Assembly: GCF_900111125.1 (NCBI RefSeq)
Contig: NZ_FOGE01000003.1
Span: 248,001 to 312,000 of the forward strand
DNA length: 64,000 nt
Reading direction: 5' to 3'
Origin: Sphingobium sp. YR768
GTDB lineage: Bacteria > Pseudomonadota > Alphaproteobacteria > Sphingomonadales > Sphingomonadaceae
Shown here: positions 33,518-49,055 of the stretch, piece after piece
How positions within the stretch are numbered: the stretch's first letter is position 1
Layout: every line of letters starts with the position of its first letter
The notes under the pieces: model-generated
What the model saw: only the letters and a program-made list of their open reading frames with translations
The model's database searches: none
What the model was told of the DNA's origin: nothing
Made by a program: the position numbers and the translations under genes

Positions 33518-34231
33518 TCAGGCGCCGAAGCCGCCGTCGATCGTGTGCAGCGCGCCGGTGATGATGCCCGCTTCCGGCCCGGCGAGATAGGCGGCGAGGC
33601 CGGCAATTTCCTGCCCCGTGGCGTGACGCTTGATCGCCATGAAACCGTGCATCAGGCTGGCCATCGGGCCATCGGACGGGTTCATGTCGGTGTCGGTCGG
33701 GCCGGGCTGGATGATGTTGACGGTGATGCCGCGCGCCCCGAAATCGCGGGCGAGGCCACGGGCCATGCCCTGCAGGGCCGACTTGGTCATCGCATAGGCC
33801 GCGCCGCCTTCGAACGGCATCCGATCGCCATTGACCGATCCGATGACGATGATCCGGCCGCCGTCGCGCATCTGGCGGGCGGCTTCCACGGCGGCATGAT
33901 AGGGCGCGCGGACGTTGATATCGATCATGCGGTCGACGGCATCGGCGTCCAGCGCCAGCGGATCACCCAATACCAGCGCACCGGCATTGACGATCAATAT
34001 GTCGAGCGGCCCCTGCGCCGAGACGACGTCAATCACGGCCTGCCGATCGGCGGCGTCGGACTGGACCGGCGTTGCGCCCGTGTCGGTCGCCAGCGCCTGC
34101 GCGGCGTCATGCGATCCGGCATAGGTGAAGGTGACGTCAGCGCCATCGCTCGCGAAACGGCGAACGATCGCCGCGCCGATGCCACGGCTGCCGCCGAGAA
34201 TGAGGGTCTTTTTGGCAGAGAAGTCGGTCAT
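33518..34231 (-). CDS. bdcA: BdcA-like short-chain dehydrogenase
   Basis: Short-chain dehydrogenase fold protein (237 aa) very like E. coli BdcA, known for binding c-di-GMP and promoting biofilm dispersal. Points of agreement: KKTLILGGSRGIGAAIVRRFA, NAGALVLGDPLALDAD, RAPYHAAVEAARQMRDGGRI, IGSVNGDRMPFEGGAAYAMT and the C-terminal LHTIDGGFGA. The Ser-Tyr-Lys site is intact. A divergent TetR gene matches the BdcR arrangement. AAGGA precedes ATG 34231. That this copy binds c-di-GMP has not been shown. Confidence 0.85.
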   Translation of the reverse strand: MTDFSAKKTLILGGSRGIGAAIVRRFASDGADVTFTYAGSHDAAQALATDTGATPVQSDAADRQAVIDVVSAQGPLDILIVNAGALVLGDPLALDADAVDRMIDINVRAPYHAAVEAARQMRDGGRIIVIGSVNGDRMPFEGGAAYAMTKSALQGMARGLARDFGARGITVNIIQPGPTDTDMNPSDGPMASLMHGFMAIKRHATGQEIAGLAAYLAGPEAGIITGALHTIDGGFGA

Positions 34232-34304
34232 GGGAAGCATCCTTGCTAAATTTGTAATGATCGCTATATAAATGAGCAAACGAACAGGTCAAGGTATTTT
34301 TGTA

Positions 34305-34901
34305 GTGGTCGATAAAGAAAAATCCAAAGGCCGTGGTCGCCCCCGCGCTTTCGATCGGGACAGGGCGCTGGATCAGGCGCAGGCGCTGTTCCATGCGCAG
34401 GGCTATGAGGGCATCGGCGTTGCCGCGCTGGCGCAGGCGATGGGTGTCAATCCGCCCAGCCTCTATGCCGCTTTCGGCAGCAAGGCGCAGTTGTTCGAGG
34501 AGGTGCTGGAGCGTTATGCCCGCAGCGCGCTGCCTGTCGACACGCTGCTGGCGGAGGGTGCGGAACCGGTTGCCGCGCTGACGGCGTTGTTGCGGGTAGC
34601 CGCCGCCATCTACACCGCCGATCCGCAGGCGCCCGGCTGTCTGGTGCTGGAGGGTGCGCGCGGGGCCGACCCGGACGCCGCCCTGCGCGCGCGGGTGTGG
34701 CGAGAGGCCAGCGCGGCGCGCATCGCCGCCTTCGTCGCCCACACCCATGCAGGCAAGGCCGCGACCGTGGCGGATTATATGGTGTCGATCATGTCAGGCC
34801 TGTCGGCCGATGCGCGGGCGGGCCATGATGTCGCGCGGCTGACTGCGGTCGCCGATATGGCGGCGCTGGCGCTTCAGGAAATGCTGACGAAGGCCGGTTA
34901 A
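34305..34901 (+). CDS. bdcR: TetR family regulator, BdcR-like
   Basis: A 198-residue TetR repressor: GRGRPRAFDRDRALDQAQAL, then the HTH in IGVAALAQAMGVNPPSLYAA and FGSKAQLFEEVLERY. It lies divergently from the BdcA-like gene and should repress it. Start is uncertain: GTG 34305 matches the short N-terminal arm of BdcR and has AAGG upstream; ATG 34272 would add 11 residues and leave only 40 bp of promoter. The 34232-34304 gap is A/T-rich and likely holds the operator. Confidence 0.82.
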   Translation: MVDKEKSKGRGRPRAFDRDRALDQAQALFHAQGYEGIGVAALAQAMGVNPPSLYAAFGSKAQLFEEVLERYARSALPVDTLLAEGAEPVAALTALLRVAAAIYTADPQAPGCLVLEGARGADPDAALRARVWREASAARIAAFVAHTHAGKAATVADYMVSIMSGLSADARAGHDVARLTAVADMAALALQEMLTKAG

Positions 34902-35713
34902 TCGGCGATGTCGCTGGCAACCAGGGTCGTTTCCTTCCGGTCGACGGACCAGAGCCGATTCCTGACCTTGGGGTCCCAGTCGATCGCCTGTCCAGGCGAG
35001 GCGATGCCGATCGTCCGTTTCCATTCCAGCACCGACCCCGCTTCCGGCAAGGCCAGTTCGTACATTTCCGGCCGGTCGTGCCCCGTGACATAGAGGCGGC
35101 CGTCCGCGCTCCAGCTTGCGCCTGAACAACTGAACGGTGCGAACCGGGCCAGCACCTGTTGCGGGAAGGTCCAGGCGGCCTCCTGCCGGAAGACGTCGTC
35201 CATGCGCACCAGCAAGGTGTAGCGATAGTCCCTGTTCGGCTCCCCGCCCTTGCCCGCATAATTGGCGTAGACCGCCCACCATTTGCCGGCATGGCGATCC
35301 AGCACGGTCAGCGATCCGGGCCCAAAACCCAGGCTGACGGTGCGCAGGTGATGCAGCGTCTTCGTATCGAAAATCTCGATCGCGCTGGTCTGCGGCACGG
35401 CGGGATAGTTGGACGCGGCGCAGACCAGTTCGCGCCCCGCCACGGTGCAACTGTTCATATGCGGGAACAGGCGGCGTTCCCCCTGCCACTGGGCGATACG
35501 CTGGCCGGTGGCGATGACATATTTGCCGATCCGGTCATTGTCGATCGCATAGACATGGATACCGTCGGACGCGACACCCTGCCGCGCTTCGGGGGCCGGC
35601 AGGCGCAGCGCAACCGGTGCGGGCGATGGCGAGGGCGCGTTATTTTCCTGCGCCTGCGCCATGCCGACGCATGCGAGGGCCGACAATGCCATGCCAATCG
35701 CTTCACGCCGCAT
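34898..35713 (-). CDS. Hypothetical secreted beta-propeller-like protein
   Basis: A 271-residue protein with a signal peptide (MRREAIGMALSALACVGMAQAQ). Repeating strands such as VASDGIHVYAIDNDRIGKYV, SNYPAVPQTSAIEIFDTKTL and WSADGRLYVTGHDRPEMYEL suggest a propeller. No catalytic motif is evident and the family is not recognised; propellers of this type often bind ligands or partners. GGGAGCAAG precedes ATG 35713. It is the last gene of the minus-strand block, 67 nt after the barrel gene, and converges with the TetR gene (4-nt overlap). Confidence 0.65.
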   Translation of the reverse strand: MRREAIGMALSALACVGMAQAQENNAPSPSPAPVALRLPAPEARQGVASDGIHVYAIDNDRIGKYVIATGQRIAQWQGERRLFPHMNSCTVAGRELVCAASNYPAVPQTSAIEIFDTKTLHHLRTVSLGFGPGSLTVLDRHAGKWWAVYANYAGKGGEPNRDYRYTLLVRMDDVFRQEAAWTFPQQVLARFAPFSCSGASWSADGRLYVTGHDRPEMYELALPEAGSVLEWKRTIGIASPGQAIDWDPKVRNRLWSVDRKETTLVASDIAD

Positions 35714-35779
35714 CACTTGCTCCCGTCCAGACATATCCCGCCGGTAGGGCGGGATTGCTACAGAAAAAGGACGGTCCGC

Positions 35780-36913
35780 CTACCAGCGCAAGGCAGCGTT
35801 GAGCATCAGGGCGCGCGCCTGATCGGCAGCACGTATCGGGCCTGAGAGAGGCTGGTCGGCCAGACGGCCGCTCATCAGCCGGTCGGGATCGGTAAGGTGC
35901 AGGCCGATGCGCGGCGCGCGCGGATCGGCCGGGACATAATCGATGCCCGCTTCGACCCGCACCGCCCGCCTGCCCTGCCCCCATGCCGAACCGCTGGTGC
36001 GTGCGGCCGTCACCGTTCCGCGCCAGGGGCCGCTATGCCATGATCCGCCCAGTGCCAGCCGCTGTTCGGCGACACCATTGTCCAGTTGCGCCCGATCATA
36101 GCGCAGTTTCCAGAGCAGATTGCGCGACAGGCTGTGTCCCGCCTCCAGCGCCATGCCGCGTAGCCGGGTCGACCCCAGATTGCGGGGCAGATAGGCTTGC
36201 GACGCGAAGGCCAGCCGGTCCCGCACCTGTCCGTCATAGGCGGCCAGTTCCAGCCGCAGCGTCGGCGTCATCCAGCGCAGGGCGACGCGGGTCCGACTGT
36301 CCCGTTCGGGCCGCAAATCATTTCGAAGCGCGCGGAAAGTGGGCATATCCAGCCCCAGCGCGCCGATCCGGCCGATATCGCCATAGGCCCGCATCGTCTC
36401 GCGATAATCGGCACCCATCGTCAGGCGCGGCGTGGCGGCGAATGCCAGTTGTGCCGAGGGTAGGAAATCGTCCCGCACGCGCAGATCGTCGCGACTGTAG
36501 GGCGACGTGACATTTACCGCCTTGCTGCTGAACTTGACCGCCTGCCACCCCAGATTGGCCGACAGCCGGTCGTCGATCGACGGCAGATCGAACAGCAGGT
36601 CGACCATGCGCGCGCTGCTGCGTGGTTCGATGCCGGTCCTCGCCGCACCGAGCGCCGCGAAACGCTGTCGCCGCCGCTGCAAGGCCAGATGCAGGTCGGC
36701 CGGCTCGGCGGGGGCGGTCGTCAGTTCGATGGCATAGATGCGCGCGGGACGCTGAGAGGGTGGCAGCAGAGGCGCCGGATGGACAGCGATGCTCACCCGC
36801 GGCTTCAAGGCAAAATGGCCATGATCGGGCCAGATCGTCTCCGCCATCGCGGCGCCGGGCAGACCGGCGACGGCAAGCGTGCAAGCAAGAGTGCAGGCGG
36901 GCGGCGCGCGCAT
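35780..36913 (-). CDS. Hypothetical outer-membrane beta-barrel protein
   Basis: A 377-residue exported protein; signal peptide ends in AAMAE near residue 24. Alternating amphipathic strands with ...W at the C-terminus (MLNAALRW) match a BAM-assembled beta-barrel. It resembles the C-terminal half of a TonB-dependent receptor but lacks the plug domain and TonB box, so it is either a truncated receptor or a different porin-like family. ATGA overlap with the upstream exonuclease-endonuclease-phosphatase gene indicates one operon. Confidence 0.65.
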   Translation of the reverse strand: MRAPPACTLACTLAVAGLPGAAMAETIWPDHGHFALKPRVSIAVHPAPLLPPSQRPARIYAIELTTAPAEPADLHLALQRRRQRFAALGAARTGIEPRSSARMVDLLFDLPSIDDRLSANLGWQAVKFSSKAVNVTSPYSRDDLRVRDDFLPSAQLAFAATPRLTMGADYRETMRAYGDIGRIGALGLDMPTFRALRNDLRPERDSRTRVALRWMTPTLRLELAAYDGQVRDRLAFASQAYLPRNLGSTRLRGMALEAGHSLSRNLLWKLRYDRAQLDNGVAEQRLALGGSWHSGPWRGTVTAARTSGSAWGQGRRAVRVEAGIDYVPADPRAPRIGLHLTDPDRLMSGRLADQPLSGPIRAADQARALMLNAALRW

Positions 36914-37989
36914 CAGCGGTTCTCCAGCGATGCGAAGCGGATGGTATCGCCACCCGGCGCATAGCACAGCGCATAGCCGACATGATCGGACAGGCGTGTC
37001 GCCTCCGGCCCGCCAAAGGGCACCTGCGCCTGCACGACAGGCATCGCCGATCCGGCCGCATCGCGGGCGAACAGCCAGTCCTTGCCGCGATCGACCGCTT
37101 CGGCCAGATCGTGCCGTTCGGTCGCGTCGGCCAGGAGCGCATCACCGAGCGCACGCCGCCCGCCACCGAGCGGCGGCGCGACGAAATCCATGCTGGCCCG
37201 CGCCATTTGACCGAAAAAGGCGGCAACCCGTTGCCGGTCGCCGCCGATGTTGAAGTCGCCCCCCAGGATCATCATCCGGTCACGCGGCACATGGCGGTTG
37301 ACGAAAGCCGCCAGCAGGCCTGCCTGACGGTCGAAGGCGCGCAACGAGCGCGCAACCGGCACGCCGGCCGCCTTGCGCGCATTGAGATGACTGTTGACGA
37401 TCGCGACCGGTGCGGCAACGCCGGGCACGCGCAGATGCGCGATCATCGCCCCCTTATTGGCGAGACAATCGAAGCCGGCACAGGCGAAGGCGGGATAGGC
37501 GATGCGATCGACCGCCATGATCGGCCAGTCGGACAGGATCAGCAATCCGCTGCCCATACGCTTGCCGATGGCTTCACCCCGGTCCCAGCGCGCATCTTGC
37601 AGAAAGGCCTGATCGGCAGGCAAAGAAGTGACCGGACTACGCATCGCCACATCCGGGCCAGCCGCGACATGGGCATAGCCGGCGCGACGCGCAAATTCCA
37701 CCGGATCGGCAATGAAGGCTTCCTGCAACAACAGGATATGGGGCTGTCGCCGCTGCGCGCGCAAATCGGCCAGCCGGTCGGCGATCTGCCCCAGCGCCTC
37801 TTCCCGCCCGAAGGCGACCGGCCAGGGCAGGCCCATGACATTATAGGTCATGACCGACAGCGGCAAATCCGGACCGGGCGACGCGGTCGGCACCGCGCCG
37901 AGCGCGCCCGGCGAACTCGCACTGGGCGAACTGGCGGCAAGCAGGACCGTCAGACTTGCGAAAAACAAGGCGCGCAAAGGTTTCGACAT
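36913..37989 (-). CDS. Exported EEP-family phosphodiesterase, sphingomyelinase-like
   Basis: A 358-residue endonuclease/exonuclease/phosphatase-fold enzyme with a signal peptide and an Ala/Ser/Pro-rich linker. Catalytic blocks in order: MTYNVMGLPWP, LLLQEAFIADPVEF, NSHLNARKAAG, LGGDFNIGGDRQR and LSDHVGYALCY. This is the metal site and Asp/His set of neutral sphingomyelinases and related phosphodiesterases. Export argues for lipid rather than nucleic-acid turnover. It leads the operon with the barrel and propeller proteins. Exact substrate is unknown. Confidence 0.8.
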   Translation of the reverse strand: MSKPLRALFFASLTVLLAASSPSASSPGALGAVPTASPGPDLPLSVMTYNVMGLPWPVAFGREEALGQIADRLADLRAQRRQPHILLLQEAFIADPVEFARRAGYAHVAAGPDVAMRSPVTSLPADQAFLQDARWDRGEAIGKRMGSGLLILSDWPIMAVDRIAYPAFACAGFDCLANKGAMIAHLRVPGVAAPVAIVNSHLNARKAAGVPVARSLRAFDRQAGLLAAFVNRHVPRDRMMILGGDFNIGGDRQRVAAFFGQMARASMDFVAPPLGGGRRALGDALLADATERHDLAEAVDRGKDWLFARDAAGSAMPVVQAQVPFGGPEATRLSDHVGYALCYAPGGDTIRFASLENR

Positions 37990-38121
37990 GATTTCAGACC
38001 CCCGCCGCGCCACCTAGCGCGCGCCTGGGTCATGCCGATGTCGCCGTCGTGGCGAAGCGGTGAAGGTTGCAAGTCAATGATCGTCACCGCACCGACGCGG
38101 GACTGTCATTATTGCGCCTAT

Positions 38122-39111
38122 CTATTGCGGGCGATGCCCCTTGCGCCATTTGATCCACAGATGGCGGGCCAGCATCAGCGGCGGCATGCGCAACCAGTGG
38201 GACCGGACATAGAAAGCGAAGACCAGCAGCTTGCGCGTCTCCCGCCCCCAGCCGTCACGGGCGAGCAGACGGGCGCGTATGAGGCGATCCCACAGCGTGA
38301 GGCGTACGCCATGGCCATAGATCGCGTCGGCCAGCCTGCGGGCCTGCGCGACATGGCGCGCCAGTCCATGATGGGCGGCGCGTGCCTTCAATGCGGCGCG
38401 ATCCGTTTCGGGCAGCAGGCAGTAGATATCCCACAGGTTGCGCAGACCGCCCTGCAGGTCGCCATCCGCCAACATATGGGCGGCGGCATGGACGACGCGA
38501 TCCTCGGCCGACAGCACATATAATCCATCGGTAATGGCTATGGCGTCCGCGATCATCGCCGCCGCGTCCGGGGTCTGGCGCGCCGTCAGCGGCAGCACGG
38601 TATGGTGGACGTCGATCAGCCGGTCGCGCTCGATATGGATCAGCGGCGGGAGTTCATGCATCCACTGGCGATAATAGGCGTCGTCATAGGCATCTTCCTT
38701 CACCCATTCCCAACCCGCGCCGATCAGCGCCTGCTCTGCGGCGCTCACGACTTCACGAGGGACGAGAATGTCGAGATCGCCGATGAAGCGGCCCTGCCCC
38801 GCCTGCAAATCCGCCGCCGCATAGGCCGTGCCTTTGAGCAGGACGACCCGCAGGCCAAGCGGCGCGAGTGCCAGCGCGGCGCGATCCGCCTCCCACAGCG
38901 CCTGTTGCGCCTCGCGCGCGCTATCGCGGCGGGCATCGTCCAATATCGGGCGGACGGCCGGGGGTATGGCAATGCCATCCAGCCGGCAGGCCAGCGTGCC
39001 GATCAGCCGCTCCGCCTTTGCTGCGGCGATCAGCGCGTTCCAGCCCGTCGCATCCAGCCCGGCGACACCGGCCGGTTCGCGCAGGCTGCGGACCAGCAGC
39101 GCGGCGCTCAT
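38122..39111 (-). CDS. Nucleotidyltransferase family protein (PF14907-like)
   Basis: A 329-residue soluble protein. The nucleotidyltransferase core is seen as VVLLKGTAYAAADLQAGQ then FIGDLDILVP (G-D-x-D-I metal site), DVHHTVLPLTARQT and later a helical region (VHAAAHMLADGDLQGGLRNL) typical of PF14907. In phosphorylating lasso-peptide clusters such proteins add nucleotides to the peptide phosphate. Stop and start overlap the HprK gene by ATGA. The peptide substrate is not identified. Confidence 0.85.
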   Translation of the reverse strand: MSAALLVRSLREPAGVAGLDATGWNALIAAAKAERLIGTLACRLDGIAIPPAVRPILDDARRDSAREAQQALWEADRAALALAPLGLRVVLLKGTAYAAADLQAGQGRFIGDLDILVPREVVSAAEQALIGAGWEWVKEDAYDDAYYRQWMHELPPLIHIERDRLIDVHHTVLPLTARQTPDAAAMIADAIAITDGLYVLSAEDRVVHAAAHMLADGDLQGGLRNLWDIYCLLPETDRAALKARAAHHGLARHVAQARRLADAIYGHGVRLTLWDRLIRARLLARDGWGRETRKLLVFAFYVRSHWLRMPPLMLARHLWIKWRKGHRPQ

Positions 39112-39971
39112 AGATGTTCCTCCCACAGGCGATCGACCATCTCGATCGCGGCATCGCCCGACGGGAAATCGATGGCGCGGGCCGGCACGCCGGTCACGAA
39201 GCGGGTCAGGGCGGCAAAGGCCGGCTCGCCCAGCGCGACATAATTGGTAGACGCCTGGGTCAGGCGCATGAAAATCTCGCCCCGCCCCACCGCGCGCATC
39301 GCCGGATCATGGCCGAAACGGGGGAAGAGCAACAAAGCGGGCATCGCCCCATGCCCCATGCGCGCGATGGCATCGGCGCGGGGGATCATGTGGCGGATGT
39401 CGCCCTTTGCCGTCGCCCTGAGCAGCGGCCCCATGCGGGTTTCGCCAACTTCCTGCGCGACGACATCGATCGCGCGATTCTTGAGGCTGACGAGGCGCGG
39501 AAAGGGCAGGATCGCGCCGCTGTCGAGATCGAGCAGCGCAAATTCGTCGCCCATCAGCCGCCAGCCCCGCTCCCCCAGCAGCGCCGCCAGCGTCGATTTG
39601 CCCGATCCGGATTCGCCGGTCATCACCAGCGCGCGTCCGTCTTTCTCGACGCTGGACGCATGGAGCAGCAAATGCCGCCGCCAGCCCAGCGCCATTTGCA
39701 GGTTCATGCCCATTTCGGCGGCCAGCAGACCATGGGCTAAGCTCATCGGCGCGGCGTCGGCCAGACCATGATCGCCGGTGATGAAGATGGAGGGGCGCAC
39801 ATAGCGGCGCAGCCTGCTGGCTGGCTGAAGCCGCACGGTAAAATCGGCGATCGCGCCGAGGATGTCGGGATAGGCGGCATAAAGGCGCGCCAGTTCGGCG
39901 ATCGGTTGCGGCCAGGCGGAGCCGATGCGGAAGGTGGCGGGGCCGATACGCAGGGTGATCGCATGCTTCAT
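39108..39971 (-). CDS. HprK-related kinase A
   Basis: A 287-residue kinase related to HPr Ser kinase. Walker A is VMTGESGSGKSTLAAL near residue 118; GDEFALLDLDSGAILPFPRL supplies Walker B-like and substrate elements, with RHMIPRADAIARMGHG later. It lacks the long N-terminal domain of true HprK and there are no PTS genes nearby. Such HprK-related proteins sit in peptide-modification clusters and phosphorylate peptides. Gene order PqqD-like, kinase, nucleotidyltransferase with ATGA overlaps on both sides marks one operon. Confidence 0.88.
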   Translation of the reverse strand: MKHAITLRIGPATFRIGSAWPQPIAELARLYAAYPDILGAIADFTVRLQPASRLRRYVRPSIFITGDHGLADAAPMSLAHGLLAAEMGMNLQMALGWRRHLLLHASSVEKDGRALVMTGESGSGKSTLAALLGERGWRLMGDEFALLDLDSGAILPFPRLVSLKNRAIDVVAQEVGETRMGPLLRATAKGDIRHMIPRADAIARMGHGAMPALLLFPRFGHDPAMRAVGRGEIFMRLTQASTNYVALGEPAFAALTRFVTGVPARAIDFPSGDAAIEMVDRLWEEHL

Positions 39972-40264
39972 GCCGGGCGCACCAGACCCAGCGCGACCAG
40001 CGCGTCCAGATGAGCGCCGATTTCCTCGACCGCTTCTTCGCGCGGGCCGAGATCGAAATCCTGCGCCAACCGGTCATGCATCTGCGCCGCCGTCAGTTCT
40101 GCGCCGTCGGTCATCCGTTCCAATATCTCCGGCACCGGGCTGATCACCATATGGGTCTGGCCGGAACGATGGTGATAGAGGAGGACAAGATCGTCGAGCG
40201 TGCAGACGGCAACCGCGTCGCGCACGTCCCGGCGATAGGCTTTGATCGCATCCAAATCCGGCAT
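39968..40264 (-). CDS. PqqD-like protein of HPr-rel-A system (RiPP recognition element)
   Basis: A 98-residue PqqD-like winged-helix protein: CTLDDLVLLYHHRSGQTHMV, then ILERMTDGAELTAAQMHDRL and a C-terminal helix pair ending LDALVALGLVRPA. PqqD-fold proteins recognise leader peptides and present them to modifying enzymes. ATG 40264 is used because the longer frame upstream crosses a structured palindromic element. It overlaps the kinase start by ATGA. Its partner peptide is not obvious; the Tat-exported protein upstream is one candidate. Confidence 0.85.
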   Translation of the reverse strand: MPDLDAIKAYRRDVRDAVAVCTLDDLVLLYHHRSGQTHMVISPVPEILERMTDGAELTAAQMHDRLAQDFDLGPREEAVEEIGAHLDALVALGLVRPA

Positions 40265-40311
40265 CCCTGGCTGGTGTCCCCCACGCTGTAGCGCGCAAGA
40301 TGTAGCCAAGT

Positions 40312-40473
40312 GCCTAAGAGTCTGTTTGGAAAATGTGCGAACGAGCACATTTTCAATGCCGCACCGGCCCACACCCCCACCCGACCTCCCAGACATGGTA
40401 CCCTGATGGGCGGTCGGGTGGGGGTGTGGGCCGGTGCGGATGCGCCATAGGCGCATTCCCAAACAGACCCTAA
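40312..40473. repeat. Four-way cloverleaf palindromic element
   Basis: Outer arms GTCTGTTTGG (40320-40329) and CCAAACAGAC (40459-40468) enclose three hairpins: 10-bp arms at 40329-40338/40345-40354 (GAAAATGTGC), 28-bp arms at 40359-40386/40412-40439 (start CCGCACCGGCCCACAC), and 7-bp arms at 40440-40446/40450-40456 (ATGCGCC). CCTAA flanks both ends, as a target duplication would. All arms are perfect. It separates the glycosyltransferase gene from the PqqD-like gene. Confidence 0.85.
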
Positions 40474-40477
40474 CGCA

Positions 40478-41638
40478 TCAGGACAGGGCTGGCGATGGCT
40501 GGCGTGCCCGTGCGGGGGCATCGGCCAGCGATTCGAAGGCGCGCAGATAGCGGTCGAGCGCCCGGTCGACGCCATGATCGTCCACCGCAGCCGCAGCCCT
40601 TACGGGACAGGATGGCTGGGTCAGCGCCCGTTCGATCGCGCGGGCGAAGGCGGCGGCATCGCCCACCGGCGTCGCGGGGTGCTGGGCTGCATCCGCCAGA
40701 AGGGGGCGGATATTCGGCGTGCTGTCGGTCGCCACGACCTGCGCACCACAGGCCAGCGCCTCTATCAGCGTGGCGCACAGCCCTTCCCAGCGGGATGGCT
40801 GGAGCAGCAGGTCGGCCTGCGCCATCAGGGTCGCCAGCGCTTCGGGGCAGCCGACATAGCCGGCGAAGTCCACGCGATCGGCGATGCCCAGCGCCGCGCA
40901 TTGCCGTTGCAGATCGGCCTGCAACGGCCCCTGCCCGACGATGGTCAGCCGCCAGTCGAGATGCGGCAGCCGTGTGAGGGCATGAAGCGCCGTCGCCTGA
41001 TCCTTCTGCTCGGCCAGCCGACCGACCATCAGCAGGCGGTGCGGGCTACCCGGCGCGCGCAGGGCACGCGCGGCGCGCGCCCGCTCCATCGCCGGCGTCA
41101 CGGTCGGGCGAGGAAGCAGGCGTACGTCGCCGCTCTGTGCCAGCAGCGCGCGATCATGTTCGCCCATGACGATGGTCAGGTCCGACAGGCGCGCGATCGC
41201 CCGGAATTTGGCGAGCCGTGTCCAAGCGCCCGCGCCGCGCTGCCCGGGGCGCACGATCGGATTGGAAATGCGGCCAACCGCCCGCGTATCGCTGCCAAGT
41301 GCGGCCAGCGCGACCAGCATATTGCTCTGGTTGCCGGCGGAATAGAGGATCGCGGGCCGATGCCGCCGCACCATGGCCGCCAGCGCCGGAAATTGCGCGA
41401 TCATGGACAGGCGACGCACGCCGCCGGGTGATGGCACCAGCCGGACGGGCAAGGCGGGATCGATCAGATGGGCGGCGGGACCATCGCGATGCGCCATCCA
41501 CAATTCCACCGGCACGCCCCGGCGCAGAAGATGATTGGCCAGCAGGATGGCGACGCGATCCAGCCCGCCATCGCCGGGTCGATAGAGATAGACAGCCACC
41601 GAAAATGCGCGCCCCACCGGGCGGCCAACCTGAAACAT
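40478..41638 (-). CDS. Glycosyltransferase family 4 protein
   Basis: A 386-residue GT-B fold glycosyltransferase. The N-terminal domain has YRPGDGGLDRVAILLANHLL, and the C-terminal domain has LLMVGRLAEQKDQATALHAL with the donor-binding block SRWEGLCATLIEALACGAQV followed by VATDS. No membrane segments, so cytosolic. Sugar and acceptor are unknown; context (Tat-exported protein upstream, peptide-modifying genes downstream) allows protein, lipid or polysaccharide glycosylation. The structured element at 40312-40473 lies just beyond its stop. Confidence 0.9.
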   Translation of the reverse strand: MFQVGRPVGRAFSVAVYLYRPGDGGLDRVAILLANHLLRRGVPVELWMAHRDGPAAHLIDPALPVRLVPSPGGVRRLSMIAQFPALAAMVRRHRPAILYSAGNQSNMLVALAALGSDTRAVGRISNPIVRPGQRGAGAWTRLAKFRAIARLSDLTIVMGEHDRALLAQSGDVRLLPRPTVTPAMERARAARALRAPGSPHRLLMVGRLAEQKDQATALHALTRLPHLDWRLTIVGQGPLQADLQRQCAALGIADRVDFAGYVGCPEALATLMAQADLLLQPSRWEGLCATLIEALACGAQVVATDSTPNIRPLLADAAQHPATPVGDAAAFARAIERALTQPSCPVRAAAAVDDHGVDRALDRYLRAFESLADAPARARQPSPALS

Positions 41639-41739
41639 CGCGCTGTCCTTGCCTTCAAAACACGAACCTGCGTGTTCGACGGCATCAACGCGACATACCC
41701 GTATCGGTTCAATTCGCTACGGGTGAGCCTGCAAGGGGA

Positions 41740-42165
41740 TCAGCGCGGCATTTGCAGCGAGGCGTAGCAGGTAAAGCCGCTCGTCCCACGCTGTAACCTG
41801 CGGATATAGTTCAGATAAGTCTGATTTTGTTCGTAACTGGTGCCGGGCAGCGGCCGACCGCGCATGGCCTGTTTCACCTGCTCCCCGGTGAAGCTGCGGC
41901 CGGTGCCGGGAAAGGCGCCCTGTGTACCGGCCGGGACGAGTTGACCGCTGGGGGCGATATAATTTCCGGCGCGGCCCTGATCGGGCACGGGGATGGTGCA
42001 GTTGAGCACGGAGGCCGCCGTATTGGCGAGCGCGGGGCGGATCGACACGATCGCGGACGCCGCGGCGGCGCCGCCCATCAGCAACTGGCGGCGCGACGGC
42101 GTCAGCGAAATCGCGTCCTGCGGCTCCACTGCCGGGCCTTCCTGTTCGGGCGTCGGTTCGCTCAT
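41740..42165 (-). CDS. Tat-exported hypothetical protein, candidate substrate of the modification cassette
   Basis: A 141-residue protein with an acidic N-terminus, a twin-arginine signal (SRRQLLMGGAAAASAI, about residues 24-39) and a short mature part with two cysteines (VLNCTIPVPDQGR and SGFTCYASLQMPR). I do not recognise an enzyme fold. Its location at the head of the glycosyltransferase, PqqD-like, kinase and nucleotidyltransferase genes makes it a plausible substrate or carrier. AAGGACGAA precedes ATG 42165. Divergent from phoR. Confidence 0.7.
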   Translation of the reverse strand: MSEPTPEQEGPAVEPQDAISLTPSRRQLLMGGAAAASAIVSIRPALANTAASVLNCTIPVPDQGRAGNYIAPSGQLVPAGTQGAFPGTGRSFTGEQVKQAMRGRPLPGTSYEQNQTYLNYIRRLQRGTSGFTCYASLQMPR

Positions 42166-42257
42166 TTCGTCCTTATCCGCGTATCACACTTGTCAAAGCG
42201 TAAAGATTGCACGCTATTGGGACCAGACATTCGCAGCAAATGCGCGACAAATCCAGC

Positions 42258-43556
42258 ATGGTAACCATGAATCGACTGAGTATTTCACAGATTACCGCCT
42301 CCCTCGCCATGCTGATGCTTGGCACGGGCGGCGCCCTGATGCTGGGTGCGCATCCGATCGGCATCGCCCTGCCGGTGTTGGCGGGGGTGCTGGTGCTGAT
42401 CATCACAGCCGGCGATTCCGGGGCGCGGCCCGCCGCAGCGCCCATCGTGGTGCTCGACCAGCCGGACCTGATCACCCATCCGGATTTCGCCAGCCTGCTG
42501 GAGGGGATATCCGATCCGCTGATGCTGGTGGAAAAGGGACGGATCGTCCGTGCCAACCGGGCGGCGCAGCGCCTGCTGGGCGCGCATATCGAGGGGGAGG
42601 ATGCGCGCATCGCCATCCGCCATCCCGCCGCCGCCGAACGGCTGGCGAGCGTGGCACCGCTGGCCGAACCGATCATGATCGAACTGGTGGGTCTGGGCAC
42701 GCGCGACCAGCGCTGGCAGATGCGCGTGGCGCCGGTTGGCGCGGTGCGCGACATGCGCCGGCTCGTCCATCTGGTCGACCATAGCGGCACCCATGCGGCC
42801 GAGCGGATGCGGGTCGATTTCGTCGCCAATGCCAGCCATGAGCTGCGCACGCCGCTGGCGGGGATATTGGGCTTCATCGAGACGCTGGCCGACCCGGAAC
42901 TGGGCAAGGACGACGACACGCGCCAGCGATTCCTGACCATCATGGATCGGGAAGCGCGACGGATGCAGCGGCTGATCGACGATCTGATTTCGCTGAGCCG
43001 GATCGAATCGGAAAAATATCGCCCGCCAGATGCGCGGGTCGACCTGTCCGAACTGGCGGCCGAAGTGGTCGGCGTGTTCCGGTCCAGCCATGGCGACCGG
43101 GGGCGTGAGGTGGAGATGGAGATCGCGCCGCAATTGCCTGTGGTGCAGGGCGACCGCGCGCAACTGTCGCAACTGCTGCACAATCTGATCGGCAATTCGG
43201 TGAAATATGGCCGCCCCGGCACGCCGATCCATGTCACCCTGAACGAAGGGCCGAGCGGCATGACCCGGCTGATCGTGGCGGATGAGGGGGAAGGCATCGG
43301 CCCGGATCACCTGCCTCGCCTGACCGAGCGATTTTATCGCGTTGATTCGGGGCGAAGCCGGGCGATGGGCGGCACGGGACTGGGCCTGGCCATCGTCAAG
43401 CATATCGTGGAGCGGCATCGCGGCCGATTCGACCTCGCCAGCACATTGGGCAAGGGCACGACCATCACCGTGCTGCTGCCCCCGCCGGTGGAAGATATAT
43501 CGGGCAAAACAGACGAAAAGAAGCGGCCGTCGGCGCTTTCGGGCACGGTGTCATAA
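42258..43556 (+). CDS. phoR: Phosphate regulon sensor histidine kinase
   Basis: Membrane sensor of the Pho system (432 aa). Two N-terminal helices (LAMLMLGTGGALML and IGIALPVLAGVLVLIITAG), a PAS-like domain, then the dimerisation box NASHELRTPLAGILGFIETL with the phospho-His, the N box LLHNLIGNSVKYG, the G1 box DEGEGIGPDHL and G2 GGTGLGLAIVKHIVE. It phosphorylates PhoB and works with PstSCAB and PhoU encoded downstream. ATG 42258 is the usual choice; ATG 42267 is equally possible. Confidence 0.93.
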   Translation: MVTMNRLSISQITASLAMLMLGTGGALMLGAHPIGIALPVLAGVLVLIITAGDSGARPAAAPIVVLDQPDLITHPDFASLLEGISDPLMLVEKGRIVRANRAAQRLLGAHIEGEDARIAIRHPAAAERLASVAPLAEPIMIELVGLGTRDQRWQMRVAPVGAVRDMRRLVHLVDHSGTHAAERMRVDFVANASHELRTPLAGILGFIETLADPELGKDDDTRQRFLTIMDREARRMQRLIDDLISLSRIESEKYRPPDARVDLSELAAEVVGVFRSSHGDRGREVEMEIAPQLPVVQGDRAQLSQLLHNLIGNSVKYGRPGTPIHVTLNEGPSGMTRLIVADEGEGIGPDHLPRLTERFYRVDSGRSRAMGGTGLGLAIVKHIVERHRGRFDLASTLGKGTTITVLLPPPVEDISGKTDEKKRPSALSGTVS

Positions 43557-43580
43557 AAAGGAAACCTGACTGTCACAAAG
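43549..43580 (+). promoter_or_regulatory. Pho box-like repeats upstream of pstS
   Basis: TGTCATAAAA and TGTCACAAAG occur 22 bp apart, a multiple of the 11-bp repeat of PhoB sites. Consensus is matched in the CTGTCA part only. They lie about 90 bp upstream of the pstS start. Weak but in the right place. Confidence 0.35.
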
Positions 43581-43659
43581 GCGCGATGGTCCGCGACTAG
43601 GGCGCTTCCACAGGGGGGCGGCGACATGCGAATCGCGGCCTTGATGTATGGAGGTTCCC

Positions 43660-44712
43660 GTGAAGAAGTTCGCTCTGCTCGCCGCCACGACCGCGAGTGT
43701 TTTCAGCCTTGCCGCCTGCGGCGACCAGACCGGCGGCGCCGGCGCGACCCGCGACCAGATCCGCGCGGTCGGTTCCTCCACCGTCTACCCCTTTGCCACG
43801 GCGGTCGCCGAACTGTTCGTGCAGGGCAATGCCGGCATGAAGTCGCCGATCGTCGAATCGACCGGCACCGGCGGCGGCATGAAGCTGTTCTGCGCGGGCG
43901 TGGGCGCCCAGCATCCCGACATTGAAGACGCATCGCGCCGCATCAAGAAGTCGGAATATGAACAGTGCCAGGCCAATGGCGTGAAGGACATCATCGAAAT
44001 CCAGATCGGCGTCGACGGCCTGGCCTTTGCCGAATCGAAAAAGGGTCCGGGCCTGAAGCTGACCCCCAAGATCGTCTATGAAGCGCTGGCCGCCAATCCC
44101 TATGGCAAGGGTCCGAATAAGGCCCAGACCTGGAAGGATGTGGACCCCAGCCTGCCGGCGATCGCCATCTCCGTCTTCGGTCCGCCCTCGACCAGCGGCA
44201 CCCGCGACTCGCTCGCCGAACTGATCCTGGAAAAGGGATGCCAGAGCGACGAGGCGATGAAGGCGCTCAAGGAAAAGAGCGAGGACGAATATAAGGCGAC
44301 CTGCACCCGCATCCGCGAAGACGGCAAATATGTGGATTCGGGCGAGAATGACAATCTGATCGTCCAGAAGCTGAACGCCAATCCCAACGCCGTCGGCGTG
44401 TTCGGCTACAGCTTCCTGGAGGAAAATAAGGACACGCTGAACGACGTGCCGATCAATGGCGTCGAGGCGACCTATGAAACGGTGTCGACCGGCCAGTATC
44501 CTGGCGCGCGCCCGCTCTACATCTATGTGAAGAAGGCGCATATGCAGGCCATTCCGGGCCTTCAGGCCTATCTCAATGCCTTCGCCGCCAACTGGGCGCC
44601 CGACGGCGCACTGACCAAGCGCGGCATGGTCGCCGCGCCGGAAGACGTGCGCAAGAAGAGCGCCGAGACGGTCAAGTCGCTGACCGTGCTCGACGGCTCC
44701 GACCTCAAATAA
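43660..44712 (+). CDS. pstS: Phosphate-binding lipoprotein PstS
   Basis: High-affinity phosphate-binding protein of the Pst transporter (350 aa), anchored by a lipobox (FSLAAC). The GTG at 43660 is the start because GGAGG sits 5 nt upstream and the in-frame ATG at 43648 overlaps that ribosome binding site. Phosphate-binding motifs include AVGSSTVYPFA, ESTGTGGGMKLF and PPSTSGTRDSLAELI. First gene of pstSCAB-phoU-phoB. Confidence 0.95.
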   Translation: MKKFALLAATTASVFSLAACGDQTGGAGATRDQIRAVGSSTVYPFATAVAELFVQGNAGMKSPIVESTGTGGGMKLFCAGVGAQHPDIEDASRRIKKSEYEQCQANGVKDIIEIQIGVDGLAFAESKKGPGLKLTPKIVYEALAANPYGKGPNKAQTWKDVDPSLPAIAISVFGPPSTSGTRDSLAELILEKGCQSDEAMKALKEKSEDEYKATCTRIREDGKYVDSGENDNLIVQKLNANPNAVGVFGYSFLEENKDTLNDVPINGVEATYETVSTGQYPGARPLYIYVKKAHMQAIPGLQAYLNAFAANWAPDGALTKRGMVAAPEDVRKKSAETVKSLTVLDGSDLK

Positions 44713-44723
44713 GCGAAGGCCTG

Positions 44724-46118
44724 ATGACCGGACCAGCCATCCTCCTGCTGCTCGCGGGCCTGGGCGCCATCGCCTGGGTCAGCGCCCGCGCCCGCGCGCT
44801 GCGGTTACAGACCGTAGCGCGCGCCACCGGGCGGCGTGACGCCGTCCACTCGCTGCCCGGCTATCATGGCTGGTATGTCGCGCTGTGGACGCTGATCCCC
44901 GCCGGCCTGTTCCTGGCCGTCTGGGCCAATGTGTCGCCCGGACTGGTGACGCAGGCCGTGCTGGCCGATCCGGCGGCGCAGAGCCTGCCCCTCGACGCCT
45001 TCTCCCGGTCCGCCGTCCTTGGCGAAGCGCGGGCGATCGCCACAGGATTGCAGTCCGGCGCCTTCAACCCGGCCAGCCAGGCGCTGGTCGAACCCTATAG
45101 TGCCGCGCTGAACACCTATGGCGTGGCCGGCGCGGTGCTGGCGCTGATTTTGGCCTTTGCAGGCGGCGCCTATGCCTTTACCCGCGTCCGTCCCGATTTC
45201 CGGGCGCGCACGCGGGTCGAGCGGCTGGTGATGGCGACCCTGCTGGTCGCATCGCTGCTGGCGATCGTCACCACGCTGGGCATCGTCGCCTCGCTGCTGT
45301 GGGAGAGCTTCCGCTTCTTCTCCATGGTGAACCCCATCGACTTCCTGTTCGGCCTGAAATGGTCGCCGCAGTCGGCCGCCATGGGCTATGGCAATGACGA
45401 TGCGTTCGGCGCGGTGCCGCTCTTCTGGGGCACCATCTTCATCGGCGCGATCATCGCCATGATCGTGGCGATCCCGCTGGGCCTGATGAGCGCGGTCTAT
45501 CTGACCCAATATGCCAGTTCGACCGTCCGCAAATGGATGAAGCCGATCCTGGAAGTGCTCGCGGGCGTGCCCACAGTGGTCTACGGCTATTTCGCCGCAC
45601 TGACGGTGGCCCCGGCCCTGCGCGATCTGGCCGTGTCGGTCGGCATCCATGGTGCCTCTTCGGAAAGCGCGCTGGCCGCAGGGCTGGTGATGGGCGTGAT
45701 GATCATTCCCTTCGTATCCTCCATGGCCGACGACAGCATCGCCGCCGTGCCGCAATCGATGCGCGACGGCAGTCTGGCGATGGGCGCGACGACCAGTGAG
45801 ACGATTACCCGCGTCCTCATTCCCGCCGCCCTCCCCGGCGTCGTCGGCGGCGTGCTGCTGGCCGTCAGCCGTGCGATCGGCGAAACGATGATCGTGGTGA
45901 TGGCCGCTGGCCTTGCCGCCAACATGACCGCCAATCCCTTCGCCAGCGTGACCACCGTGACGACCCAGATCGTCCAGTTGCTGACCGGCGATCAGGAGTT
46001 CGACAGCGCCAAGACGCTGGCGGCCTTCGCGCTGGGACTGGTGCTGTTCATCGTCACCCTGCTGCTCAACATCGTGGCCCTGCGGGTCGTGAAGAAATAT
46101 CGCGAGGCTTACGAATGA
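44724..46118 (+). CDS. pstC: Phosphate ABC transporter permease PstC
   Basis: Inner-membrane permease (464 aa). The extended N-terminal region (two extra membrane segments and a 100-residue insert) is usual for the alphaproteobacterial form; enteric PstC is about 320 aa. The EAA-type loop is AMGATTSETITRVLIPAALPGV near residue 352. Pairs with PstA. A composite repeat follows, so transcription of pstA must pass through it. Confidence 0.94.
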   Translation: MTGPAILLLLAGLGAIAWVSARARALRLQTVARATGRRDAVHSLPGYHGWYVALWTLIPAGLFLAVWANVSPGLVTQAVLADPAAQSLPLDAFSRSAVLGEARAIATGLQSGAFNPASQALVEPYSAALNTYGVAGAVLALILAFAGGAYAFTRVRPDFRARTRVERLVMATLLVASLLAIVTTLGIVASLLWESFRFFSMVNPIDFLFGLKWSPQSAAMGYGNDDAFGAVPLFWGTIFIGAIIAMIVAIPLGLMSAVYLTQYASSTVRKWMKPILEVLAGVPTVVYGYFAALTVAPALRDLAVSVGIHGASSESALAAGLVMGVMIIPFVSSMADDSIAAVPQSMRDGSLAMGATTSETITRVLIPAALPGVVGGVLLAVSRAIGETMIVVMAAGLAANMTANPFASVTTVTTQIVQLLTGDQEFDSAKTLAAFALGLVLFIVTLLLNIVALRVVKKYREAYE

Positions 46119-46130
46119 GCCCGGAACTTC

Positions 46131-46273
46131 AACATCCGTTCGCCCTGAGCCTGTCTAAGCCTGTCCCGAGCGACGCCTCAGGCGGCGTCGAAGGGGGCTC
46201 GCCTGAGCGACGCGAAGGCTCTGCGCTTCGCTCCGCTCAGCAAAGGGCTTCGACTTCGCTCAGCCCGAACGGG
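46131..46273. repeat. Composite palindromic repeat inside the pst operon
   Basis: The pstC-pstA gap begins ATCCGTTCGCCCTGAGCC and ends GACTTCGCTCAGCCCGAACGG, with inner dyads such as GCGACGCCTCAGGCGGCGTCG. Same family as copies near 6.2, 7.7, 12.2, 16.6 and 51.1 kb. No TSD is obvious. Confidence 0.8.
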
Positions 46274-46284
46274 GATATGCTATC

Positions 46285-47529
46285 ATGACCGCTCAACGTC
46301 TCCCCACCGACTGGAAGTCCGATGCGATGCGCAAGCGGATCGCCCGGCGCTATGGTGCCGAGCGCCGCTTCAAGCTGGCCGGTCTGGCTGCCGTCGCTTT
46401 GTCCGCCGCCTTCCTCGCCTTCCTGCTCTTCACCATGATGGGCAATGGCCTGCGCGGCTTCACCCGGACCGAGATTGCGCTGACGGTCGACTTCCCGGCA
46501 TCGCCGTTGCTGCTCGATCCCAATGCGATCACCGACGAGGCACTGGCGAACGCCAACCTGCCTATGGTGACCGGCGAAGTGGCGAAGAAGGCGCTGGGCG
46601 GTGACGCCGACGCGCTGCTGTCGCCCACTGCGTGGATCAGCATCCGCGATGCGATCAAGGCCGATCCCAAGATATTGAGCCGCACCGAAACGATCCGCGT
46701 GCCCGCATCCACCGCGATCGACCTTGCCGCCAAGAGCAAGGGATCGCCGGAGGCCGAAGCGGAAGTCGCGCGGCTGAAGCAACAGGGCGTGCTGTCGACC
46801 GGCATCAACTGGAACTTCCTGACCGCCAGCGATGGCACCGATCCGACGCAGGTCGGCATCTGGGGCGCGTTCAAGGGGTCGTTGCTGACGATGCTGGTGA
46901 CGCTGTTGCTCAGCTTCCCGGTTGGCGTGGCGACCGCCCTCTATCTGGAGGAATATGCGCCCAAGGCGTGGTGGACCGACATCATCGAAGTGTCGATCAA
47001 CAATCTGGCCGCCGTCCCCTCCATCATCTTCGGCCTGCTGGGCCTGTCGATCTTCCTCAACTTCCTGCACCTGCCCCGATCGGCTGCGCTGATCGGCGGC
47101 ATGACGCTGGCGCTGATGACGATGCCGGTCATCGTCATCGCCGGGCGCAACGCCATCAAGGCGGTGCCGCCCAGCATCCGCGACGCAGCGCTCGGCATCG
47201 GGGCCAGCCCGGTACAGGTGGTGTTCCAGCATGTCCTGCCACTGGCCCTTCCCGGCATCCTGACCGGCACGATCATCGGCATGGCCCGCGCGCTGGGCGA
47301 GACGGCACCGCTGCTGATGATCGGCATGCGCGCCTTCATCGCCACGCCGCCGGGCGGGATCACCGACCCTGCGACCGTGCTTCCGGTGCAGATCTTCCTG
47401 TGGTCGGACGAAGTCTCCAAGGGTTTCGTTGAAAAGACCTCTGCCGCCATCATCGTTTTGCTGGTCTTCCTGCTCGCGATGAACGGCCTCGCCATCTACC
47501 TGCGCAACAAGTTTGAAACACGGTGGTAA
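46285..47529 (+). CDS. pstA: Phosphate ABC transporter permease PstA, with DUF3333 domain
   Basis: Permease (414 aa) with the N-terminal DUF3333-type region (about residues 50-180), then the transport core: [30 protein letters not shown]-like segment ([16 protein letters not shown]) and the EAA loop [23 protein letters not shown]. Works with PstC, PstB and PstS. Its last codons overlap a possible GTG start of pstB. Confidence 0.94.
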
Positions 47530-47537
47530 TCGACCCC

Positions 47538-48326
47538 ATGACGCAAGAACAAACCGACCTGACCATCGCCAATCCGAAGATGTCGGCCCGCGACGTCAAG
47601 GTTTTCTATGGCCCCAAACAGGCGATCAAGGGCGTGTCGATCGATGTCGACATGGACCATGTCACCGCCTTCATCGGCCCGTCGGGCTGCGGCAAGTCGA
47701 CCTTCCTGCGGACGCTGAACCGCATGAACGACACCGTCGCTTCGGCGCGGGTCGAAGGCGAAATCACGCTAGACGGCGAGAATATCTACGCCCCGACGAT
47801 GGACGTGGTGCAGTTGCGCGCGCGGGTGGGCATGGTGTTCCAGAAGCCCAATCCTTTCCCCAAGTCGATCTATGAAAATATCGCTTACGGGCCGCGCATC
47901 CACGGCTTGGCCGCGGGCAAGGCGGACATGGACGTGATCGTCGAAAAGTCGCTGCGCCGCGCCGGCCTGTGGGACGAAGTGAAGGACCGGCTGAACGATA
48001 GCGGCACCGCGCTTTCCGGCGGCCAGCAGCAGCGGCTGTGCATCGGCCGTGCGATCGCGGTGGAGCCGGAAGTCATTCTGATGGATGAGCCCTGTTCGGC
48101 GCTGGACCCGATCGCCACGGCCAAGATCGAGGAACTGATCCACGAACTGCGCGGCCGCTACGGCATCGTGATCGTGACTCATAACATGCAGCAGGCCGCC
48201 CGCGTTTCACAGCGGACCGCCTTCTTCCACCTTGGCGAACTGGTCGAATATGGCGTGACGAGCGACATCTTCACCAATCCGCGCCAGGAGCGGACCAAGG
48301 ACTATATCACCGGCCGTTACGGCTGA
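47538..48326 (+). CDS. pstB: Phosphate ABC transporter ATPase PstB
   Basis: ATPase of the Pst system (262 aa). Walker [21 protein letters not shown], signature [16 protein letters not shown], Walker [16 protein letters not shown], and the H-loop [18 protein letters not shown] are all present. ATG 47538 is taken as start; a GTG at 47523 overlapping the pstA stop is an alternative with five extra residues. Confidence 0.96.
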
Positions 48327-48356
48327 TTTTGAGGCTGATCGCCGGAGAGACGAGAC

Positions 48357-49052: not shown

Positions 49053-49055
49053 TCC

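What the first reader, a model, noticed from the sequence alone, without database searches (positions are those of the whole stretch)
38122..42165. HprK-related kinase, PqqD-like and nucleotidyltransferase cassette without lasso cyclase, with a Tat-exported candidate substrate
Minus-strand genes run: Tat-exported small protein, GT4 glycosyltransferase, PqqD-like protein, HprK-related kinase, PF14907 nucleotidyltransferase, the last three with ATGA overlaps. In known lasso-peptide tailoring, HprK-type kinase and nucleotidyltransferase modify the peptide, and a PqqD-fold element recognises the leader. Here no asparagine-synthetase-like cyclase or leader protease is present. A phosphorylated or nucleotidylated envelope peptide or protein would be new. 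The two-cysteine Tat protein is the leading substrate candidate but no modified residue is known.
Basis: partly seen in the sequence, partly recalled or inferred. Interest (0 to 1): 0.75.

Follow-up and report, generated by a model that had tools for sequence, protein, structure and literature searches.

The report
Kinase cassette with Tat-exported client protein
Next to a three-enzyme cassette that is thought to phosphorylate peptides sits a small exported protein with a strongly conserved serine-containing tail, and in the bacterial genomes sampled the two are almost always found together, which makes that protein the likely target and gives a concrete site to test.

Summary
On the minus strand the genes run Tat-type protein, GT4, PqqD, HprK-related kinase, PF14907 nucleotidyltransferase; ATGA overlaps join the last three. 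The enzymes are NCBIfam's 'HPr-rel-A system' (TIGR04352/TIGR04353); open-licence paper searches found nothing on it. The Tat protein tracks the kinase: 54 of 54 kinase-positive congeners have it versus 1 of 7 without (that one at a contig edge); in the family 23/23 versus 0/41; in 349 phylum genomes 48/59 versus 1/290, and 9 of the 11 kinase-only genomes carry a second class of Tat protein in the same slot. It tracks the kinase even where unlinked. GT4 is a clade-specific insertion. Among 23 Tat proteins only the twin Arg and C133/S136 are invariant, giving a C-terminal [S/T]-C-phi-x-S-phi motif; S136 is my candidate acceptor. No modification was shown. A Bacillota analogue without cyclase (linear polyphosphorylated peptides) was published in May 2026, so a cyclase-free cassette is not itself new; a Tat-exported, proteobacterial protein substrate with this motif is what I did not find in print.

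The parts
41740..42165 (-). Tat-type small protein (141 aa), proposed client; twin Arg R25R26, mature Cys56, C-terminal motif T132-C133-Y134-A135-S136-L137
   Evidence: invariants; co-occurrence; model: residues about 60-126 ordered, tail low confidence
40478..41638 (-). GT4 glycosyltransferase, found in part of the genus only, not core
40311..40477 (.). palindromic repeat (MITE-like), many copies in the genome, lies between GT4 and PqqD
39968..40264 (-). PqqD-like / RRE-like protein, TIGR04353, 98 aa
39108..39971 (-). HprK-related kinase A, TIGR04352; invariant H104, G122, G124, K125, D142, E143
38122..39111 (-). PF14907 nucleotidyltransferase; invariant K93, G94, D112, D114, D167; model resembles nucleotidyltransferases
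42207..43556 (+). divergent PhoR-like histidine kinase, frequent neighbour (not proposed as part of the mechanism)
   Evidence: best NCBIfam model phoR_proteo, 290 bits, below its cut-off of 334

Best explanation
The cassette is a cytoplasmic protein-modification system whose dedicated client is the Tat-exported small protein. The PqqD-like protein binds the client through its N-terminal Tat leader (inferred), as RiPP recognition elements bind leaders, and presents the C-terminal tail to the HprK-type kinase, which phosphorylates the invariant Ser of the [S/T]-C-phi-x-S-phi motif (S136 in the window; inferred). The PF14907 nucleotidyltransferase then acts on the phosphate, adding a nucleotide or (as reported for PsmN in pseudomycoidin) enabling attachment of a sugar (inferred). 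The finished protein is exported by Tat to the envelope, where it probably serves polysaccharide or surface functions (weakest step). Shown here: gene content, family membership, co-occurrence, motif invariance, presence of the expected catalytic residues. Inferred: binding, phosphorylation, acceptor residue, second step, export, role.
For: Co-occurrence: genus 54/54 kinase-positive carry the Tat protein, 1/7 kinase-negative (p=1.3e-7); family 23/23 vs 0/41 (p=6.8e-18); phylum 48/59 vs 1/290 (p=4e-47), and 9 of the 11 kinase-only genomes have a class-B Tat protein in the same slot. Unlinked cases keep both genes (L183-L187; L202-L206); in L183, L203, L204, L205 and L206 a PqqD gene lies beside the Tat gene. 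Local slot: 125 of 152 non-redundant loci have a CxxS-type Tat protein, 13 another Tat-type protein. Motif: in 23 sequences only R25, R26, C133, S136 are invariant; in 121 script-found proteins, selected on CxxS plus the residue after it, the unselected residue before Cys is S/T in 121 and the one after it aromatic/aliphatic in 121. Tandem or extra clients with the same tail (L005; L189, L190). One 706-residue ORF of L077 matches both my kinase and NTase profiles (kinase part also TIGR04352). Kinase motif residues present, corresponding by motif reading, not alignment, to those tested in BsfK (PMC10368454, passages).
Against: No modification of this protein was observed in anything I read. Class B clients lack CxxS, so the acceptor cannot be the same everywhere; 3 of the 48 phylum hits (G531, G555, G604) match only in the signal half of the profile, and the two of these fetched (L078, L084) lack CxxS. 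Nine of the 48 phylum genomes, five of the 23 family genomes and three of the 54 genus genomes gave a row to the profile used, so those hits are built in. C133/S136 invariance could serve a disulfide or a binding site. Seven loci without a local Tat gene were not pursued in the rest of their genome (L088 and L131, cut by contig ends; L133, L150, L153, L174, L179). The leader pattern is enriched over shuffles (121 of 121 vs mean 44) but fits only 9 of 13 in the non-CxxS group, and ordinary Tat signals were not used as control.
Confidence: 0.66

Rival explanations
1. The enzymes modify a saccharide or polysaccharide intermediate of the XrtA/PEP-CTERM exopolysaccharide pathway, and the Tat protein is a periplasmic partner of that pathway, not the substrate.
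For: In distant locus L064 the cassette lies between XrtA-system FemAB/glycosyltransferases and the TIGR03108 amidotransferase, and L071 has that amidotransferase downstream and L066 the XrtA TPR protein upstream; in the order 72 of 79 kinase-positive genomes also have TIGR03108 (E <= 1e-200) vs 36 of 68 others; a TPR-sulfotransferase lies between kinase and NTase in L074.
Against: PqqD/RRE proteins bind peptides (family knowledge); TIGR03108 occurs in 36 genomes without the kinase whereas in the family the Tat protein never did (0 of 41); the invariant Ser-containing tail is unexplained; in the window genome TIGR03108 is on another contig.
Confidence: 0.17
2. The Tat protein is the client, but the chemistry differs: phospho-Ser is only an intermediate, for example eliminated to dehydroalanine and captured by a Cys (C56 or C133) to form a thioether, as in lanthipeptides with kinase-type enzymes (recalled).
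For: The two invariant tail residues are a Cys and a Ser three apart, and a Cys near the mature N-terminus is at least 90% conserved.
Against: No lyase or cyclase family matched in the cassette; the PF14907 model matches nucleotidyltransferases.
Confidence: 0.08
3. The association is regulatory or structural only: the cassette and the Tat protein belong to a phosphate-responsive module with PhoR, and the Tat protein is not covalently modified.
For: A divergent histidine-kinase gene lies within 900 nt of the Tat gene in 84 of 121 representatives (its false positive L041 left out); it is PhoR-like in the window and followed by pst-phoU-response-regulator genes.
Against: No Pho-box enrichment upstream of the Tat gene compared with shuffles; in 37 of the 121 no such gene was found within 900 nt (some stretches are short); the cassette keeps its Tat protein in other contexts.
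Confidence: 0.09

Closest known systems
HPr-rel-A system (NCBIfam TIGR04352 kinase, TIGR04353 PqqD)
   Same: Kinase and PqqD exceed the curated cut-offs; this is a member.
   Different: The names shown give no substrate, and neither Pfam nor NCBIfam has a model above cut-off for the Tat proteins scanned; the client and its motif are the addition.
Linear polyphosphorylated peptides (LPP), Popov et al. 2026, PMC13381572 (abstract, Results section 6, Discussion and passages read)
   Same: HprK-like kinase, discrete RRE, NTP transferase, no macrolactam cyclase; conserved N-terminal leader with variable C-terminus; often in capsule loci.
   Different: LPPs are stated to be restricted to Bacillota, use a SipW-like leader peptidase, an exporter and a YxxP leader motif, with Ser3 of the core phosphorylated; here a Tat signal, no such peptidase or exporter among the neighbours scanned, and a C-terminal Ser candidate. 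Tat, twin-arginine and Proteobacteria do not occur as whole words in that main text.
Paeninodin/pseudomycoidin/Bsf phosphorylated lasso peptides (PMC9266682 and PMC10368454, passages only)
   Same: HprK-type kinase; RRE boosts phosphorylation (BsfB1); NTase PsmN reported to put hexoses on the phosphorylated Ser.
   Different: No cyclase or B2 protease among the neighbours scanned; the client is a longer protein (99-261 residues from the twin Arg in the 121 script-found) rather than a short peptide.
HPr kinase/phosphorylase (HprK)
   Same: Weak match over the P-loop region; solved HprK structures are the top matches of the kinase profile (E 1e-4).
   Different: 18.9 bits against a cut-off of 240; the residue after the invariant Asp142 is Glu in all 15 aligned.

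Membership tests
HPr-rel-A system | kinase above TIGR04352 cut-off | tested here: met
   226 vs 200 bits
HPr-rel-A system | PqqD-like protein above TIGR04353 cut-off beside it | tested here: met
   71.6 vs 35 bits, ATGA overlap
Lasso peptide cluster | AsnB-like macrolactam cyclase | tested here: not met
   none among 17 window proteins scanned, 33518-49757; the genome's TIGR03108 protein is on another contig
Lasso peptide cluster | B2 leader peptidase | tested here: not met
   none among the same 17 proteins; rest of genome not searched
Linear polyphosphorylated peptides | kinase + discrete RRE + NTP transferase without cyclase | tested here: met
Linear polyphosphorylated peptides | SipW-like leader peptidase and MsbA-like exporter | tested here: not met
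   none among the 17 neighbours scanned apart from the phosphate ABC transporter
Linear polyphosphorylated peptides | YxxPxVLxHQxIxFETxxS leader motif | tested here: not met
   absent from the leader by reading; a YIAP in the mature part is not conserved in 13 aligned
Linear polyphosphorylated peptides | phosphorylation of the precursor | not testable with these tools
   needs mass spectrometry
Tat substrate | twin Arg n-region, hydrophobic h-region, A-x-A site | tested here: met
   RRQLLMGG...RPALA by reading; both Arg invariant in 23; no signal-peptide predictor run, export not tested
Classical HPr kinase | TIGR00679 above cut-off | tested here: not met
   18.9 vs 240 bits

The most novel reading that the evidence does not exclude
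A phylum-wide class of RiPP-like exported proteins: the PqqD protein is a chaperone of the Tat signal itself, the kinase and nucleotidyltransferase install a phospho-linked nucleotide or sugar on the Ser of a C-terminal [S/T]CphixSphi tail, and Tat exports the finished protein, so that a Tat leader doubles as the RiPP recognition leader. One kinase would serve several such clients in some genomes, and the phospho-linkage would tie the protein to envelope polysaccharide.
Probability: 0.3. Interest if true: 0.88.

Novelty: new variant of a known kind. Interest (0 to 1): 0.7.

Why it matters
Kinase/NTase/RRE modification is known from small secreted peptides; here a widespread, named but unexplained system acquires a candidate protein substrate, a precise candidate residue, and genomes in which substrate and enzymes were separated yet both kept. 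That turns an annotation ('HPr-rel-A system') into a direct experiment, and if true would show phosphorylation or nucleotidylation of a protein before Tat export.

Tried and rejected
Pho-box regulation of the Tat gene: a recalled consensus scored no better than shuffles; dropped. PqqD-kinase fusions (L067, L069, L090, L091) suspected from ORF lengths: rejected, my PqqD profile finds nothing in the kinase ORFs, and the extra length reads as start-codon over-extension. Fold search of the Tat protein model: 44 matches, none with E <= 0.001. PDB sequence search with the Tat profile: best E 0.19, not credible. PDB search with the NTase profile: best E 0.27. Paralogue of the Tat protein in the window's own genome: next best E 0.026 over 27 signal-region positions. 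Plasmid search of the region: two records, each matching about 40 bases or fewer. The 121-of-121 versus 0.96 shuffle figure is partly circular, those proteins having been picked for CxxS; I rely instead on 125 of 138 local Tat-type proteins having CxxS and on the unselected flanking residues. My codon-based gene caller misassigned starts and missed short genes, so slots were re-checked in stop-to-stop frames. L041 was removed by hand from the positives (an arginine-rich stretch in a 335-codon frame that does not look coding); L092 and L099 are below the kinase cut-off and stay in the denominator of 152. Papers: searches; searches listed none; the others listed, by title and abstract start, nothing on this system apart from the lasso/LPP papers used.
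Full report
What is there. PqqD (39968-40264), kinase (39108-39971) and nucleotidyltransferase (38122-39111) are linked by two ATGA overlaps. The kinase and PqqD pass the curated cut-offs of TIGR04352 and TIGR04353, which NCBIfam labels the HPr-rel-A system; the third is PF14907, 'uncharacterised nucleotidyltransferase'. The Tat protein matches no Pfam family, and in NCBIfam only its signal region gives a sub-threshold match. A ~165-bp palindromic repeat with many copies in the genome (78 match rows, several being the two orientations of one copy) separates GT4 and the Tat gene from the three enzymes.

Which genes belong together. TIGR04352 exceeds its cut-off in 54 of 61 genomes of the genus, 79 of 147 of the order, 7 of 240 of the class and 58 of 349 of the phylum. 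With the window these are 181 loci, 152 after removing kinases at 90% identity or more. In 125 of the 152 a Tat-type protein with a C-terminal CxxS lies upstream of PqqD or the kinase (121 by script after removing the false positive L041, plus L069, L122, L125 and L146 seen). Thirteen more have another Tat-type protein in that slot (L063, L065, L066, L075, L078, L079, L082-L087, and L089 with a CxxSG). Twelve lack a local one (L004, L037, L041, L076, L088, L098, L131, L133, L150, L153, L174, L179; L088 and L131 are cut by contig ends). Two (L092, L099) score below the kinase cut-off. GT4 was found in 8 of the 61 loci compared, all in the genus; 9 of the 121 script-found representatives have the long gap it fills.

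I searched the same genome sets with profiles of the Tat protein. In the genus all 54 kinase-positive genomes have it, 6 of the 7 others lack it, and the seventh (G020) has it at the edge of a contig, next to the usual histidine-kinase gene. In the family, 23 of 23 kinase-positive and 0 of 41 other genomes have it. In the phylum sample the diverse profile finds it in 48 of 59 genomes with a kinase match at E <= 1e-25 and in 1 of 290 without. Three of the 48 (G531, G555, G604) match only in the signal half; L078 and L084, from two of them, are Tat-type proteins without CxxS. Some hits are built in, because the genome gave a row to the profile: three in the genus, five in the family, nine in the phylum. 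Of the 11 kinase-only genomes, nine have a class-B Tat protein in the slot, one (G474) has a sub-cut-off kinase, and one (G612) is 57% complete and was not fetched. The single Tat-only genome (G497, E 7e-7) carries more distant kinase and NTase relatives near that gene.

Unlinked pairs. The association is not mere operon inheritance. In G113 the Tat and PqqD genes sit by a histidine-kinase gene on one contig and the kinase on another; in four genomes of one genus (g6: G095, G140, G157, G179) the Tat gene stays by such a gene while the kinase is elsewhere. In G512, G501, G554 and G459 the Tat gene lies on a contig other than the kinase's, in three of them with a PqqD gene next to it; G608 has a linked copy and a second one on another contig with its own PqqD gene. 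In G564 the hit is next to the kinase on the opposite strand. So five of the twelve loci without a local Tat gene (L004, L037, L041, L076, L098) have one elsewhere or inverted; the other seven were not pursued. Two order members (G089, G115) have an extra Tat protein with the same tail away from the cassette, and L005 has two in tandem, so one kinase may serve several clients.

The motif. In 23 Tat proteins (the other 22 are 14-65% identical to the window's) the only invariant residues are the twin arginines, C133 and S136; C56 is at least 90% conserved. Among the 121 script-found proteins the residue before the Cys is T (81) or S (40) and the one after it F, Y, W, L, I or V in all; neither was a selection criterion. 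The Ser is usually followed by five or six residues (82 of 121), at most 49. In the AlphaFold2 model (mean pLDDT 67) residues about 60-126 are ordered and the tail with the motif is low-confidence. A pattern of two hydrophobic residues, T/S and another hydrophobic residue in the h-region fits 121 of 121, against a mean of 44 in shuffles, and 9 of 13 of the non-CxxS group; this is a candidate for PqqD binding, but ordinary Tat signals were not used as control.

The enzymes look active. The kinase keeps H104, G122, G124, K125, D142 and E143 in all 15 aligned sequences. By motif reading these correspond to residues tested in the lasso-peptide kinase BsfK, where His, Lys and the acidic pair mattered (PMC10368454, passages). 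The nucleotidyltransferase keeps K93, G94, D112, D114 and D167 in 52; its model (pLDDT 91.9) matches MenT1 best (E 5e-4), with ANT(2'')-Ia (0.012) and LnuA (0.12) weaker. In L077 one 706-residue ORF matches both my kinase and NTase profiles.

Surroundings. In 84 of 121 representatives, the window among them, a divergent histidine-kinase gene, PhoR-like in the window, lies within 900 nt of the Tat gene, but no Pho box is enriched. In L064 the cassette lies inside an XrtA/PEP-CTERM polysaccharide locus, between FemAB/TIGR03087/TIGR03088 genes and the TIGR03108 amidotransferase; L071 and L066 also have XrtA-system genes beside it, and L074 a TPR-sulfotransferase. In the order, 72 of 79 kinase-positive and 36 of 68 other genomes have TIGR03108 at E <= 1e-200. 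An envelope-polysaccharide role is plausible, but the link is looser than that to the Tat protein.

Comparison. Popov et al. 2026 (PMC13381572; abstract, Results section 6, Discussion and passages read) describe linear polyphosphorylated peptides of Bacillota: HprK-like kinase, RRE, NTP transferase, a SipW-like peptidase and an exporter, no cyclase, with Ser3 of the core phosphorylated; they call the family restricted to Bacillota. In pseudomycoidin the kinase PsmK phosphorylates the C-terminal Ser and PsmN puts hexoses on it (review PMC9266682, passages). So a cyclase-free cassette of this type is already known; the proteobacterial, Tat-exported protein client with a conserved tail is not in what I could search.

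Verdict. The Tat protein as client: likely (about 0.75). Ser136 as the modified residue: about even. Nature of the second step and biological role: open.

Noticed in passing
40311-40477: Palindromic, MITE-like repeat with a 33-nt hairpin; 78 match rows in the window's genome, several being both orientations of one copy.
   Followed up: partly
36913-38013: Endonuclease/exonuclease/phosphatase-family protein next to the cassette with a weak match to a sphingomyelin phosphodiesterase model (28.5 bits, cut-off 248).
   Followed up: no
L063, L065, L066, L075, L079, L082, L083, L085, L086, L087 (about 1 kb upstream of the kinase): Second class of Tat-type proteins in the same slot, longer, several with an S/T-P-G-x-W/F stretch and a YLNA-like stretch instead of CxxS.
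   Followed up: partly
L189:5303-5923 and L190:5735-6328: Extra Tat-type proteins with SCIxSI tails away from the cassette, beside a gene that looks like a sigma factor by eye; possible second clients of the kinase.
   Followed up: partly
L207: Distant kinase and NTase relatives around a small Tat-type protein without the CxxS tail; perhaps a sister system.
   Followed up: no
L074:7692-9404: TPR-sulfotransferase gene between kinase and NTase; genes of 555-754 aa occupy that place in several related loci and may add a further modification.
   Followed up: partly
G000:C37:118079-119953: XrtA-system amidotransferase (TIGR03108) of the window's genome, on another contig than the cassette.
   Followed up: no
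L157: Record titled Bacillus sp. 2B10 holds a sphingomonad-like copy of the kinase (61% identical); probably a mislabelled or contaminated record.
   Followed up: no
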